In this document: positions 5,302 to 33,011 of the stretch, piece after piece | Layout: each line of letters begins with the position of its first letter | How positions within the stretch are numbered: position 1 is the first letter of the stretch | Virus record (IMG/VR): IMGVR_UViG_3300021963_008220 | Coordinates: 1-64,000 of that record | DNA length: 64,000 nucleotides | From: a virus | Strand: one strand, 5' to 3' | The notes under the pieces: model-generated | What the model saw: only the letters and a program-made list of their open reading frames with translations | What the model was told of the DNA's origin: nothing | The model's database searches: none | Program-made: the position numbers and the translations under genes

Positions 5302-5874
5302 ATGAAAACATTTAAACATTTCAAGGGCGGAACTAACGAAGGTCTAGAGCTCGAAGGCATAGAAATAACATCAGCTTCTGGCGTTACCTCTCCCAAATCT
5401 CTTCCTGCTGATATTGTTGCAGTATTCGAAAAAAGACTAGCAGATGAGTATATCGCTCACTACACATATAGAAACGCAGCTAACTGGTGTAGAAACGCAA
5501 ATTATAAAAAAGCCGCTGCTTATTTCGAAGGTGAAGCAGCAGAGGAATTAGAACATGCTAAAGGACTCCAGGATTATTTGACCCAGTGGAACATTCTTCC
5601 CCAGATTCCTGCAGTAAACGTACCTAACGAATTTGATTCATTAGTCAATATTATTGACGAAGCTTACGACATCGAATATAAGTTATTGCAAAGCTATTCT
5701 GCCCTTCAGCACGCCCTTTGTGATTCACACCCAGCAACTTTCAACTTCATCCAAAAATATGTTGATATTCAGAATGAGTCAGTTGGAGCTTACTCTGATC
5801 TATTAAATGCACTCATGTTAATCAACATAGATAACAAATTAGATCTTTTGATTTTCGAGGAAAGATATTTCTAA
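5302..5874 (+). CDS. Ferritin-like diiron protein with capsid-targeting-type leader
   Basis: The 190-residue product begins with a leader (MKTFKHFKGGTNEG), then a linker to about residue 35. A ferritin four-helix bundle follows: EKRLADEYIAHYTYRNAANW, then AAAYFEGEAAEELEHAKGLQ with the E..EE..HA ligand pattern, then EAYDIEYKLLQ and FIQKYVDIQNES. These Glu and His residues match a ferroxidase diiron centre. Ferritins oxidise and store iron as oligomeric shells. A tagged copy could be carried in the virion or could manage iron during infection; neither is shown. Dps is an alternative but the helix pattern fits ferritin better. Confidence 0.85.
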   Translation: MKTFKHFKGGTNEGLELEGIEITSASGVTSPKSLPADIVAVFEKRLADEYIAHYTYRNAANWCRNANYKKAAAYFEGEAAEELEHAKGLQDYLTQWNILPQIPAVNVPNEFDSLVNIIDEAYDIEYKLLQSYSALQHALCDSHPATFNFIQKYVDIQNESVGAYSDLLNALMLINIDNKLDLLIFEERYF

Positions 5875-26350: not shown

Positions 26351-27499
26351 ATGACGCCAGAGGAAATCAAGGAAATACAGGATAGAATAGAAAAACTTAC
26401 CTCATTAAAGAATGAGTTAAAGAATGAAGAACAGGCCATAAAATTAACGATGAACTCTATCTACGGAGCGATCGGTAACAACTGGTTTGTCTGTTTCAAT
26501 CCTGATGTAGCCGAAGCCGTTACTCTTCAGGGTCAAGATTTGATTAAGTATTCAGAGAAAGTGTTACATAAATACTTCCACGAATACTGGCATATTGATA
26601 AAGAGCTCCACGAGAAACTTGGACTCACCACAGTTAAGAAGGTTTCTAAACCTTTAGTTGTTTATGGCGACACCGATTCCAACTATGTAACTTTTCAGGA
26701 AGTGGTAGACTCATGCGATTGGCAAGGTGATCCCAAGGATTTCATTCTTAAATTAAATGAGTTTAGGCTGACTGAATATCTCAAGAATTGTTTTGAACAC
26801 TACTCTAAAAAATGGGGTACTCAAAACTACCAAGATTTTGAGATGGAGAATCTAGCCATAAATGGAATATTTTTAGGTAAAAAGAAATACGTGACCAACC
26901 TGGTTTATTCGGATGGAATCCACATGGATCCTTTATCCCAATTAAAAACAACAGGGGTGGAAATGATTAAAGGGGGAACACCTCCTTTCGTTAGGGAGAA
27001 ACTAATCTACCTTACTAAATTCATTTTCTCCAAAGGTCGCAGTTTCGAAATTAGGGAATTTGTTAAAGAACTTAAGGACATTAAGAGAGATTTTAAAATA
27101 CAAGAGCCTAGAAACATCTCAGCGGCAATAGCTATTAATAACTATGAGAAATACATACTAAATGACGTAACTGCATTAGAAGTTACTAAGGGATGCCCTA
27201 TTCAAGTTAGAGCTGCTGCTTATCACAACTATCTTCTGAATAAATCCAAGTACAAGGACAAATACCCGTTAATCAGAAGCGGAGAAAAAATCAATTACTA
27301 TTTTGTTAAAACCAAGTCTATTCTGGATAATAACGTTTTTGCATACTCTCAGGGAACCTATCCTTACGAATATGCTCCTCCAATTGATCATGATATGCAA
27401 TTCACTAAGACCATTTTGGATCCAATTAATCGATTCATCGAGGTTATGGGATACAATAGTATAAGTCCGAACTTATTCTTAATAAATGCTTTGTTTTAA
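26351..27499 (+). CDS. Family B DNA polymerase, C-terminal part (palm motifs B and C, thumb)
   Basis: The 382-residue product starts with a charged helix (EEIKEIQDRIEKLTSLK) and enters motif B at about residue 31, KLTMNSIYGAIGNNWF, then motif C YGDTDSNYV (~104) with the catalytic aspartates and ends LFLINALF, a hydrophobic tail like a clamp-binding peptide. It has no exonuclease and no motif A; these are in the product encoded at 9749. The breakpoint is in the fingers, between motifs A and B. The two pieces lie 15.2 kb apart on the same strand with eleven or so genes between. Confidence 0.95.
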   Translation: MTPEEIKEIQDRIEKLTSLKNELKNEEQAIKLTMNSIYGAIGNNWFVCFNPDVAEAVTLQGQDLIKYSEKVLHKYFHEYWHIDKELHEKLGLTTVKKVSKPLVVYGDTDSNYVTFQEVVDSCDWQGDPKDFILKLNEFRLTEYLKNCFEHYSKKWGTQNYQDFEMENLAINGIFLGKKKYVTNLVYSDGIHMDPLSQLKTTGVEMIKGGTPPFVREKLIYLTKFIFSKGRSFEIREFVKELKDIKRDFKIQEPRNISAAIAINNYEKYILNDVTALEVTKGCPIQVRAAAYHNYLLNKSKYKDKYPLIRSGEKINYYFVKTKSILDNNVFAYSQGTYPYEYAPPIDHDMQFTKTILDPINRFIEVMGYNSISPNLFLINALF

Positions 27500-27720: not shown

Positions 27721-27946
27721 TTCCTACAGAAATTTTATACTAGAAGAAGCTGAAATAGTTTTAAGGGAAAGAAAAAGGTTTGTCCAAACCGATTCAATAG
27801 CTTCAATAACAAAGCTTTTCAACCTGGACCAGATGATAGATTTCTTCTATCTGGAAGGAGAATATGAGATTGTTCAGGATTTAACTAATTTAAAAAGAGC
27901 TATTATGATTAAGCACTTTTTAAAGGGCCAGATAAGTGATATATAG
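27677..27946 (+). CDS. Small helical protein, distant member of the YE..YE family
   Basis: The 89-residue product contains MIDFFYLEGEYEIVQDLTNL, similar in pattern to the aromatic-E-E-YE-C phrase in the proteins encoded at 21490, 37026 and 37291, but with Val in place of Cys. All are short, acidic-basic helical proteins. Function unknown. Confidence 0.55.
   Translation: METKTTEASILDNYDSYRNFILEEAEIVLRERKRFVQTDSIASITKLFNLDQMIDFFYLEGEYEIVQDLTNLKRAIMIKHFLKGQISDI
27938..27945 (+). promoter_or_regulatory. GATATATA octamer before the RimK-like gene
   Basis: Spans the stop of the previous gene and lies 22 bases before ATG 27968, the same distance as upstream of the tagged genes at 5302 and 46555. 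Confidence 0.45.
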
Positions 27947-27967: not shown

Positions 27968-29425
27968 ATGGCCGATAAAGTATTAGATTTTTGGTCCTTT
28001 TTGAATGAGTCAAAGGGGGAAACCACTAAGGTTATAGTTCTAACTGGGAATACGAAGGGAAGTAAGACTGCTAAATCCTTTGCAGAACAGTGTGAAAAAA
28101 GGGGAGCAGAATGCTATGTCGTAGATGTAAACCAAACAGTAATGGAAAAGGTTTACAACGGACACCTCTTAAAAACAGGAGAAGAGGGAATCTTGATAGA
28201 TCCAAATTCAACAGTAATCGTGCCTAGAAGAGGGGTTATCGAAAACTCTTACACTAAGCAGCTATTAGAACAACTGGAGGCTAATAGATATTTTACAGTA
28301 AACACATTAGAATCTATCGAGGTTTGTGAAAATAAATACACAACTTCTCAATATTTAGAGGAAGCGGGATTACCCGTACCTAAGTATGCTCTGGTACCAA
28401 ACGAGGATTTCTTAGATCAATCTTTAGAACAAATAGGCGGCAAATTCCCTATTATAATGAAGCTTTTATCGGGTACACAGGGTATAGGAGTTTCTATAGT
28501 GGATTCATACGCATCTCTAAAATCTGTTTACCAAACGATCAGAAAACTTGACGAAACAAGCGAAATCTTGGTTCAAGAAAAAATTGACTCCAACTTCGAT
28601 CTAAGAATCCAAGTTATTCTTAAAAACTTCGACCCTATAAATCCTTCAGTAGACAACTGCATAATCTTAGGCTCTATGAAAAGGGAAGCTGTTGAGAAGG
28701 ACTTTAGAACAAACTACTCATTAGGTGGTTCGGTTTCTAACTACGAAATACCGGAGGATCTAGTTGAAATAGCTTGTAAGGCAGCTAACGCAGTGGGATG
28801 TCACTGGTGTGGAGTTGATATAATGATTGACAAAAAATCTAAGAAGCCTTATATTTTGGAGGTAAACTCTTCTCCAGGAACGGAAGGTATATCTAAGGCA
28901 ATAGGAAAACCAATTGTAAATGACGTTTTAGATTACCTTTTAGATAAAGCTAATTGGAGCTACTCAAACCTAGAAATAGGATATCTAGAACAAATCACAG
29001 TACCAGGTATTGGAAATATGATAGCTAAATTTGACACTGGAAACGGTGCAAAATCTTGTACTATCCATGCAGATGAAATAGAGGAAAGAGGTAAGAAGCT
29101 TATCTGGTCAGTGGGAGGAAAAAAATTCGTAAATGACATCATAGGATATTCCGATGCTGAGGTTGGTAGGGATACCCACACTAGACCAATCATACAGACA
29201 AATCTTGAATTTAATGGTATCCTAGTACCTGATGTTAAAGTTTCACCAGTCGATAGAACCGAAAAGAGCACGCCTTTCTTAGCTAATAGAGCTTTTATGA
29301 AGAGATTAGGTCTTATAGTTAATCCAAACAAGGCATTCGTTGTTACTAACGAGCCTGAGGATAAATATAGCCCGGGCAAAGCAAAAGGTGAACAACACGC
29401 TGGAATCTACTTTGAAAATAAATAA
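27968..29425 (+). CDS. RimK-like ATP-grasp ligase fused to RimB-like (PF05618-type) protease domain, with capsid-targeting-type leader
   Basis: ATG 27968 is preferred to the TTG at 27965. The leader is MADKVLDFWSFLNESKGE. Residues ~20-315 are a RimK-type ATP-grasp enzyme: N-terminal domain with VPRRGVIEN, then GKFPIIMKLLSGTQGIGVSI, EILVQEKID, and GVDIMIDKKSKKPYILEVNS with metal-binding Glu and Asn. Residues ~340-485 match the retropepsin-like domain of the ATP-dependent zinc protease/RimB family: MIAKFDTGNGAKSCTIHA and FLANRAFMKRLGL. RimK adds glutamates to ribosomal protein S6, and RimB trims them in Pseudomonas. A tagged fusion could be injected to change host ribosomes, which is inference. 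Confidence 0.85.
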   Translation: MADKVLDFWSFLNESKGETTKVIVLTGNTKGSKTAKSFAEQCEKRGAECYVVDVNQTVMEKVYNGHLLKTGEEGILIDPNSTVIVPRRGVIENSYTKQLLEQLEANRYFTVNTLESIEVCENKYTTSQYLEEAGLPVPKYALVPNEDFLDQSLEQIGGKFPIIMKLLSGTQGIGVSIVDSYASLKSVYQTIRKLDETSEILVQEKIDSNFDLRIQVILKNFDPINPSVDNCIILGSMKREAVEKDFRTNYSLGGSVSNYEIPEDLVEIACKAANAVGCHWCGVDIMIDKKSKKPYILEVNSSPGTEGISKAIGKPIVNDVLDYLLDKANWSYSNLEIGYLEQITVPGIGNMIAKFDTGNGAKSCTIHADEIEERGKKLIWSVGGKKFVNDIIGYSDAEVGRDTHTRPIIQTNLEFNGILVPDVKVSPVDRTEKSTPFLANRAFMKRLGLIVNPNKAFVVTNEPEDKYSPGKAKGEQHAGIYFENK

Positions 29426-29431
29426 TAAAAT

Positions 29432-29614
29432 ATGAGCTCACAAGAAGAAAAATCAGAAAAAATACAAGTACTTCTATCTGAAGAGGATCTAACCGATCTT
29501 AGTAGAAAGATAGCTAAGGCTGCACTAGCAAAAGGTGAAGCACCTGTATCAATCTCTCACTATGTTAGAAGACTAATTAGAAGAGATTTGGGTAAAAGCA
29601 CAAGTAAGGATTAA
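29432..29614 (+). CDS. Small ribbon-helix-helix-like protein
   Basis: The 60-residue product reads KIQVLLSEEDLTDLSRKIAK then VSISHYVRRLIRRDL, a strand followed by two helices as in RHH/CopG DNA-binding proteins. It would act as a dimer, possibly as a transcription regulator. It lies 6 bp after the RimK-like gene. Confidence 0.6.
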   Translation: MSSQEEKSEKIQVLLSEEDLTDLSRKIAKAALAKGEAPVSISHYVRRLIRRDLGKSTSKD

Positions 29615-29934
29615 TTCTTACCGAAAAAGTCTTTGAATGATAATACTCTAGGTGAGGAATCACTTAGAGTATTTTTTTGCTCCGTTTCTTCCTCTTCCTC
29701 CGGATCTTCTATCCCATCAACTCCTTCTACCCCGGATTCTCCTGGAGAATCATGTCCAGTATCTTCTGGTTTTTTCCCTGATTCCTGACCTACCTCAACT
29801 TCAGCTGTCGAATCTTCCTCAGGTTCTATTTCAAGTTCATCCCAAGATCCTTGTCCTTCTTCCCTCCCAATTTCTGGGTTTAATTGTGATGTGTCTGGAG
29901 ATATCTCGTCCCCTGATAATTGTTCGCCTTCCAT
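29611..29934 (-). CDS. Highly acidic protein with C-terminal SFKDFFGKN motif
   Basis: The 107-residue product is dominated by Glu, Asp, Gly, Ser and Pro and is probably disordered. It ends VLSFKDFFGKN, a basic-aromatic tail resembling the N-terminal leaders and the C-terminal SYLDF tail of the protein encoded at 2667. Its 3' end contains a hairpin that can terminate the plus-strand RHH gene; the two genes overlap by 4 bp tail to tail. Low codon complexity makes the call less certain, but the conserved-looking tail supports it. Confidence 0.6.
   Translation of the reverse strand: MEGEQLSGDEISPDTSQLNPEIGREEGQGSWDELEIEPEEDSTAEVEVGQESGKKPEDTGHDSPGESGVEGVDGIEDPEEEEETEQKNTLSDSSPRVLSFKDFFGKN
29641..29678 (+). 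terminator. Terminator of the plus-strand operon, inside the convergent coding region
   Basis: AATACTCTA (29642-29650) pairs with TAGAGTATT and is followed by TTTTTT. The hairpin lies within codons of the minus-strand gene 29611-29934. Confidence 0.75.
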
Positions 29935-32569: not shown

Positions 32570-33011
32570 GGGCCTAACCGGAATTGATCCGCAGGCGTAG
32601 TTCTTTGAATGCAGGCAGTGTTAGTATCGGAAACACTTAAATAACCTATACACGCTATAAATGGCAAAAAATCAGTTTGGGACGTTATCAACGCGTTTGG
32701 TACTCCTGTAAACGAGGTAGAGTACGCTTACGCTGCCTAACCTCCGGAGTCTCACTTACTCTGATTAAAAAATGTGAAACGGGAAAAAGGGTTAATAGTA
32801 CCACAATCCGACAACCATCAGTAACCCCGAAATACCCTTAAGATCGCTGTTAATGGAAGTCAAAAGTGGAGGATTAGTTCTCAGTAAACCGAACCACTAT
32901 AAAATAAGGGAATTGTGAAGTTTGTTCATTTAGAAAAATGATCTAAGCCTGTGAATGAGTTCTCTGAGTTAACTGAAGGAGACGAGGGTTCGAATCCCTC
33001 TAGGTCCACCA
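32570..33011 (+). ncRNA. ssrA: Phage-encoded transfer-messenger RNA (tmRNA)
   Basis: This fills the only stretch over 300 bp without a protein gene. The 5' GGGCCTA (32570-32576) pairs with TAGGTCC (33001-33007), giving a seven-pair tRNA-like acceptor stem (one G.U), followed by A and an encoded CCA. A T-arm GAGGG-TTCGAAT-CCCTC precedes it. The 5' side has GGAATTGAT, like the conserved GGATTCGAC of tmRNAs. In the middle a frame ends with AAC GAG GTA GAG TAC GCT TAC GCT GCC TAA, a degradation tag with the YAxAA end of bacterial tags. tmRNA rescues stalled ribosomes with SmpB; smpB is not in the window, so host SmpB would be needed. Confidence 0.92.
32708..32740 (+). other. tmRNA tag reading frame (VNEVEYAYAA)
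   Basis: Aligned with the E. coli tag ANDENYALAA, the frame reads VNEVEYAYAA and TAA. The resume codon would be GTA at 32708, but it could lie one or more codons upstream in the same frame. Confidence 0.75.

What the first reader, a model, noticed from the sequence alone, without database searches (positions are those of the whole stretch)
27968..29425. RimK-like ligase fused to a RimB-like protease domain, tagged for the head
Seen: leader, ATP-grasp domain and retropepsin-like PF05618-type domain in one chain. Known: RimK adds glutamates to ribosomal protein S6; RimB is a protease that opposes it in Pseudomonas. Inferred: a writer and an eraser of a ribosomal modification in one injected protein, a functional analogue of T4 Alt (packaged, modifies RNA polymerase) but aimed at translation.
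Basis: partly seen in the sequence, partly recalled or inferred. Interest (0 to 1): 0.85.

Follow-up and report, generated by a model that had tools for sequence, protein, structure and literature searches.

The report
Head-tagged phage RimK–RimB fusion enzyme
A large T4-type phage carries one protein that combines an enzyme adding glutamate tails with a protease that cuts such tails, behind a short tag of the kind that sends proteins into the phage head, so it is probably shipped into the host with the DNA to alter a host protein, perhaps the ribosome.

Summary
Window 27968–29425 encodes 485 aa: a 14-residue leader, a RimK-type ATP-grasp ligase and a C-terminal RimB/RloA-type retropepsin, with no catalytic residue missing. 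In 88 non-redundant full-length relatives the ATP-grasp residues and the DTGN motif are invariant, and the two arginines that bind poly-glutamate in RloA are kept (88/88 and 86/88).

The fusion itself is not new. Monier et al. 2008 reported marine phage RimK with a C-terminal DUF785 and proposed an effect on translation.

What appears new is the head link, which rests on four lines. (1) The leader ends in FLNE|S, like the putative maturation site of the relatives' own capsid protein (SLNE|S). Their scaffold repeats carry a similar motif, and the strict motif occurs in 60/88 relatives. (2) A GATATATA box precedes the gene in 25/25 family members. The same box precedes the prohead protease–scaffold gene. 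(3) Other leader-bearing genes carry it too. (4) The YerA41 homologue (33% identity) was found in virions by mass spectrometry.

Packaging is therefore likely but unproven for this phage. Ejection, ligase activity and the substrate (S6 or other) are inferred. Leaders are missing or altered in some clades, so packaging is not universal. I file it as a new variant of a known kind.

The parts
27938..27945 (+). GATATATA promoter-like box, first base 30 nt before the ATG
   Evidence: Present 24-34 nt before the start in 25/25 distinct upstream sequences of the window family; 34 in the 134-kb record against 7.2 expected, 31 of them just before an ORF; also before the prohead protease-scaffold gene in 6/6 relatives
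27968..29425 (+). RimK-RimB fusion protein, 485 aa (RimKB)
27968..28009 (+). Head leader, residues 1-14 (MADKVLDFWSFLNE), predicted prohead-protease cut after Glu14
   Evidence: N13 and E14 invariant in 25 family members; strict motif in 60/88 relatives against 0/1166 interior windows; same P3-P1' residues as the putative capsid-protein site (S)LNE|S of relatives; residues 1-17 disordered in the model
28028..28318 (+). Pre-ATP-grasp domain (RimK_N-like), residues 21-117
   Evidence: PF18030 E 2.7e-4, below the gathering score; aligned to RimK structures
28328..28936 (+). RimK-type ATP-grasp domain, residues 121-323
   Evidence: PF08443 E 3.4e-33; catalytic residues invariant in 88/88
28973..29353 (+). 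RimB/RloA-type retropepsin domain, about residues 336-462
   Evidence: profile hits 9g59, 2pma, 9g58; fold match
29033..29044 (+). DTGN active-site motif, residues 356-359
   Evidence: invariant in 88/88 full-length relatives
29354..29422 (+). Disordered C-terminal tail with conserved KGxxHAGIxFE, function unknown
   Evidence: invariant G474, G479, I480, F482; pLDDT below 50; absent in Mosig and YerA41

Best explanation
RimKB is a late-expressed internal head protein of a T4-type jumbo phage. Its leader carries it into the prohead core and the prohead protease cuts after Glu14, leaving the enzyme in the head (inferred; a relative was found in virions). It enters the cell with the DNA (inferred). 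There, with host ATP and glutamate, the RimK domain adds an alpha-linked poly-glutamate tail to a host protein C-terminus, and the retropepsin domain, working as a dimer, trims the tail to a set length and may stimulate the ligase as RimB does. Ribosomal protein S6 is the leading but unproven substrate. Shown by computation: both folds with intact active sites, the leader and its match to the phages' own maturation sites, and the shared promoter-like box. Not shown: cleavage, ejection, either activity, the substrate.
For: Fold and active sites. RloA residues R114 and R137, whose mutation hurts poly-Glu cleavage most (PMC12239564), correspond to R406 (86/88) and R430 (88/88). Leader: in all distinct window-family members, 60/88 overall, also in Pelagibacter phage Mosig and Methylophilales phage Melnitz. 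N-terminal motif in the 134-kb record: 8 found against 0.16 expected. Relatives with records up to 430 kb encode an S77 prohead protease fused to a scaffold with Y-S-K-Y-L-A-E-N repeats and a gp23 capsid protein with an SLNE|SAG site. GATATATA box; association of leader with box, Fisher p 1.9e-5. Virion: YerA41 g112 'Ribosomal protein modification protein' starred as detected by LC-MS/MS (PMC7354516); the record annotates the homologue as 'structural protein'. T4 precedent: about 10-residue capsid-targeting sequence (PMC9958956) cleaved off by gp21 (PMC10229621); Alt cut at ITE-6 (PMC5694885).
Against: Several clades lack the Glu of the leader (LEKFVFKG group L101-L108, L112-L117, L049, YerA41) although LEKFVFKG phages keep the same capsid and scaffold sites, so cleavage and perhaps packaging are not universal. 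YerA41 g112 is scored as a middle-phase gene and 63 phage proteins were found in that preparation. No leader cleavage has been seen by mass spectrometry. Phage proteins have N after DTG where RloA and retroviral proteases have A. The ligase lacks two poly-Glu contacts of Pseudomonas RimK: R8 is G27 and S68 is I91. The tested bacterial RimBK hybrid did not glutamylate S6. The prohead protease was not found in the window's own 134-kb fragment.
Confidence: 0.55

Rival explanations
1. The enzyme is made and acts in the cytoplasm during infection, like the leaderless cyanophage RimKs, modifying S6 or another protein to favour phage translation; the copies in the head are by-standers or a minor pool.
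For: Cyanophage RimK proteins have no leader; Melnitz has only the ligase; some clades lost the leader's Glu; the gene lies beside DNA polymerase or regA in several phages; YerA41 g112 is scored as middle phase.
Against: Leader conserved with variable flanks in all window-family members, and promoter-like box shared with the prohead protease-scaffold gene.
Confidence: 0.2
2. It works during head assembly or inside the particle: it glutamylates or trims phage core proteins, with no host target.
For: Leader and box place it with the core; in some relatives the gene lies within about 7 kb of the capsid gene; a Glu-rich phage protein with EEEEE is encoded next door at 29611-29934.
Against: The Glu-rich neighbour is found in only 9 of 40 loci; ATP is not expected in a mature head; characterised RimK homologues act on cellular S6 or cofactors.
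Confidence: 0.15
3. The ligase acts on a small molecule or carrier protein (as MptN, CofF or LysX do), with the retropepsin as a regulator.
For: The MptN model scores higher (127.8 bits) than the S6-ligase model (98 bits); none of the equivalog cut-offs is reached.
Against: A linked poly-Glu-type retropepsin with conserved poly-Glu arginines points to poly-Glu chains; the best folds are RimK structures including the RimK-RpsF complex 5zk6.
Confidence: 0.1

Closest known systems
Marine phage RimK with C-terminal DUF785 (Monier et al. 2008, PMC2530865)
   Same: Same two domains in the same order, T4-like gene neighbours, same proposal that it acts on translation
   Different: Leader, head targeting, promoter and the retropepsin/poly-Glu nature of DUF785 are not mentioned in the passages I read; the window family is found in larger (jumbo) phage records
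RimBK hybrid of Desulfotalea psychrophila (PMC11957791)
   Same: RimB and RimK domains in one chain; protease part cuts poly-Glu S6
   Different: Domain order reversed (B then K); no head leader described
RimK + RimB of Pseudomonas; RloA periplasmic retropepsins (PMC12239564)
   Same: Same folds, DTG, poly-Glu-binding Arg residues
   Different: Separate proteins in bacteria; DTGA instead of DTGN; RloA is secreted
Haloarchaeal RimK/LysX-family protein with C-terminal DTG domain (Salinirubellus, L068)
   Same: K then B order in one chain (also noted by Monier for Halobacteria)
   Different: Cellular, no head leader, DTGA
T4 internal head proteins and Alt
   Same: Short N-terminal leader ending in hydrophobic-x-Glu, cut by the prohead protease; packaged and ejected enzyme as a concept
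   Different: No sequence or fold relation; Alt is an ADP-ribosyltransferase acting on RNA polymerase (own knowledge)
YerA41 g112 / YerA41_066 'structural protein'
   Same: 33% identical full fusion, found in purified virions (PMC7354516)
   Different: No FxxFLxE leader recognisable

Membership tests
RimK-family alpha-L-glutamate ligase | TIGR00768 subfamily score above the curated cut-off | tested here: met
   150 against 143.4 bits
RimK-family alpha-L-glutamate ligase | ATP-grasp lysines, Mg ligands and acidic/Asn residues intact | tested here: met
   K123, K165, D284, E298, N300, R213, R239, R247, N249 in 88/88
S6 (RpsF)-L-glutamate ligase proper | PRK10446 equivalog cut-off | tested here: not met
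   98.3 against 331 bits
S6 (RpsF)-L-glutamate ligase proper | Adds Glu to S6 C-terminus | not testable with these tools
   needs biochemistry
PF05618 / RimB-RloA retropepsin | Pfam gathering score | tested here: not met
   13.2 against 27 bits for the single sequence
PF05618 / RimB-RloA retropepsin | Homology to solved members at profile and fold level | tested here: met
   E 2.7e-9 to 2.1e-7; Foldseek top hits 2pma, 9g59, 9g58
PF05618 / RimB-RloA retropepsin | Catalytic D-T-G and poly-Glu-contact residues (RloA K46, R114, R137) | tested here: met
   D356-T-G 88/88, R406 86/88, R430 88/88, K354 73/88; numbering from PMC12239564
PF05618 / RimB-RloA retropepsin | Cuts poly-glutamate as a dimer | not testable with these tools
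   needs biochemistry
RimBK hybrid (D. psychrophila type) | RimB domain N-terminal to RimK | tested here: not met
   order is K then B
Marine phage RimK-DUF785 | ATP-grasp followed by DUF785 in T4-like phages | tested here: met
T4-type internal head protein with capsid-targeting leader | Short N-terminal leader ending in hydrophobic-x-Glu | tested here: met
   FWSFLNE|S, conserved
T4-type internal head protein with capsid-targeting leader | Prohead protease and gp23 capsid in the same phage, with matching sites | tested here: met
   in 10 of 11 related records for each family, matching sites where read; protease not found in the window's own fragment
T4-type internal head protein with capsid-targeting leader | Present in the virion, leader removed, ejected into the host | not testable with these tools
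   virion presence reported for the YerA41 homologue; nothing for this phage
T4 Alt | ADP-ribosyltransferase domain | tested here: not met
   no such Pfam hit

The most novel reading that the evidence does not exclude
Many large aquatic T4-type phages eject, with their DNA, a self-contained poly-glutamate ligase/protease that re-tunes the host ribosome (S6) before any phage gene is read: a virion-delivered editor of translation.
Probability: 0.3. Interest if true: 0.87.

Novelty: new variant of a known kind. Interest (0 to 1): 0.62.

Why it matters
RimK–DUF785 has been known in phages since 2008, with no evidence in the papers I read about when it acts. The head leader, the promoter-like box shared with the prohead protease gene and the unconnected virion detection in YerA41 turn it into a testable prediction: a glutamylation enzyme delivered with the DNA. 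It would also give RimB-type retropepsins, newly recognised in bacteria, a viral role, and would point to the remaining leader-bearing proteins of these phages as candidate ejected proteins.

Tried and rejected
A single-sequence Pfam search for the protease domain (E 0.085, below cut-off) was replaced by a family profile. Prohead protease in the window's own record: not found; the record is a 134-kb fragment and relatives reach 434 kb, so related records were used. Idea that leaders co-vary with protease specificity (LEKFVFKG clade): rejected, those phages keep SLNE|S and YSEYLAEN. Apparent K–B fusion in Vibrio megaplasmids (H31, H37): the RimK frame ends about residue 305, so it is not a fusion in one frame. 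Cellular origin of L049 (Paludibacteraceae MAG): the contig looks like phage (a 589-aa ORF beside the gene resembles a baseplate protein by eye, no domain search run), probably mis-binned. T4-type TATAAATA late promoter: not enriched at this gene; GATATATA found instead. Phage-encoded S6 as substrate: none in 12 records. PADLOC: no hit. YerA41-based viral scan: no relatives. A wider search of one bacterial phylum was not possible.

Full report
What is there. The ORF at 27968–29425 encodes 485 aa. Residues 21–323 are a RimK-type ligase (PF08443 E 3.4e-33; TIGR00768 above its cut-off; best PDB folds are RimK structures, target-normalised TM 0.89). Residues from about 336 form a domain that Pfam alone does not accept. 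A profile of 22 relatives reaches the solved DUF785/RloA proteins (E 2.7e-9, 5.9e-8, 2.1e-7), and an AlphaFold model of the domain is closest to Lpg0085, RloA2 and RloA and then HIV protease. The finding's coordinates and anatomy are therefore confirmed.

Active sites. I extracted 199 relatives from IMG/VR and phage records and kept 90 non-redundant ones; 87 full-length ones plus the window protein give 88. R87, K123, K165, R213, R239, R247, N249, D284, E298 and N300 are invariant in 88/88, as are D356-T-G-N and R430; R406 is kept in 86. By counting from the catalytic Asp (D48 of RloA), R406 and R430 correspond to RloA R114 and R137, and K354 to K46. In the RloA model these residues touch poly-glutamate, and R114A and R137A have the strongest effects on cleavage (PMC12239564). 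In the ligase, R87 and N300 match the poly-Glu contacts R64 and N262 of P. aeruginosa RimK, and R213 matches R189 by the D-[ILV]-R motif; R8 and S68 are not kept (G27, I91) (PMC10092738). The protein therefore looks like a competent poly-Glu ligase with a poly-Glu protease, but not a copy of the S6 ligase (PRK10446 98 against 331 bits).

The leader. All window-family members begin with a short variable stretch followed by a motif close to [FY]xx[FY][LI]NE[AS] (N13 and E14 invariant in 25). The strict pattern occurs at the N-terminus of 60/88 relatives and in none of 1166 interior windows of the same proteins. In the 134-kb record the pattern is found at 8 N-termini against 0.16 expected from interior frequency. 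The motif was chosen after seeing RimKB, so one of the eight is not independent. In related records (217–430 kb) an S77 prohead protease domain is fused to a scaffold region made of 14-residue repeats such as YSKYLAENLDKNIS, and the gp23-type capsid protein has ...YHSLNE|SAGAYNSLG ahead of the Gp23 domain. FLNE|S of RimKB thus matches the putative maturation site of these phages' own capsid protein; that site is read from sequence, not measured. In T4 the capsid-targeting leader is about 10 residues (PMC9958956) and is cleaved off by gp21 (PMC10229621), and Alt is cut at ITE-6 (PMC5694885).

The promoter-like box. GATATATA stands 24–34 nt before the start in 25/25 distinct upstream regions of the family. 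In the record it occurs 34 times (7.2 expected from a first-order model), 31 times just before an ORF start. It is enriched before genes whose product begins with a head-type leader (14 of 28 against 22 of 176, Fisher p 1.9e-5) and lies before the prohead protease–scaffold gene in 6/6 relatives. I infer a late promoter shared with head genes; expression was not measured.

Virion evidence. YerA41 carries a 33% identical full fusion, annotated 'structural protein'. The YerA41 paper lists g112, 'Ribosomal protein modification protein', with the asterisk for LC-MS/MS detection in particles (PMC7354516). I identify g112 with YerA41_066 from gene order after the two ribonucleotide reductase genes (g109 and g110; 063 and 064). 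That preparation contained 63 phage proteins, so carry-over is possible.

Against universality. LEKFVFKG-clade proteins (L101–L108) keep the aromatic motif but lack the Glu, although their phages keep SLNE|S and YSEYLAEN. YerA41, L049 and L112–L117 lack the strict leader. Cyanophage RimKs have neither leader nor protease.

Prior art. Monier et al. 2008 found more than a hundred marine phage-like RimK homologues, several with DUF785 at the carboxy side, noted the same order in Halobacteria and the reverse in some bacteria, and proposed an effect on translation (PMC2530865). Salinirubellus confirms K-then-B in haloarchaea. A bacterial RimBK hybrid (reverse order) is a working poly-Glu protease that did not glutamylate the S6 tested; RimB also stimulates RimK (PMC11957791). 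The fusion is therefore known. The head leader, the promoter link and the connection to virion data are what I did not find in the papers searched.

Mechanism. Most likely the enzyme is loaded into the prohead core by its leader, cut free after Glu14, and ejected. ATP and glutamate in the host would switch the ligase on, and the retropepsin, which needs two chains for its two Asp, would trim or set the length of the tail. Steps shown computationally: folds, active sites, leader, site match, box. Steps inferred: cleavage, ejection, activities, substrate. S6 is the leading candidate from family knowledge only.

Noticed in passing
window 32570-33011 (+): One-piece tmRNA gene with tag peptide EVEYAYAA in the phage.
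   Followed up: no
window 5302-5874 (+): Ferritin-like protein (PF00210 E 5.3e-19) that starts MKTFKHFKGGTNEG, a head-type leader, with GATATATA 30 nt upstream: candidate packaged ferritin.
   Followed up: partly
whole record G000, e.g. 9361, 17854, 29964, 46555, 60091, 93810, 123648, 126213, 130042: About twenty proteins, mostly without any family among those tested, share a leader-like N-terminus and often the GATATATA box: a likely set of internal head (ejected) proteins.
   Followed up: partly
window 29611-29934 (-): Glu-rich protein on the minus strand, opposite to its neighbours, with EEEEE and a C-terminus RVLSFKDFF that resembles the leader motif; relatives (9 of 40 loci) keep a similar C-terminal motif.
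   Followed up: partly
window 29432-29614 (+): 60-aa protein directly downstream of RimKB, conserved in 35 loci at about 77% identity; weak transcriptional-regulator hit (phrog_536, E 0.029); some relatives carry leader-like N-termini.
   Followed up: no
window 29354-29422 (+): Disordered C-terminal tail of RimKB with conserved KGxxHAGIxFE; could be an interaction or self-modification site.
   Followed up: no
L050-L057 (related jumbo-phage records): Prohead protease and scaffold are one polypeptide, the scaffold part being 14-residue repeats each holding a cleavage-like motif YSxYLAEN.
   Followed up: partly
G000 103136-103702 (L046): A shorter gp23-like protein (296 aa); the relatives have a full gp23 capsid gene elsewhere and several also carry such a short paralogue.
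   Followed up: no
window 26351-27499 (+): ORF matching only the C-terminal part of a family B DNA polymerase (phrog_262 positions 492-840 of 856): the polymerase gene seems split.
   Followed up: no
L049 (JAKSNF010000036.1): Contig binned as a Paludibacteraceae MAG carries RimKB near a 589-aa ORF that looks like a phage baseplate protein: likely a mis-binned phage.
   Followed up: partly
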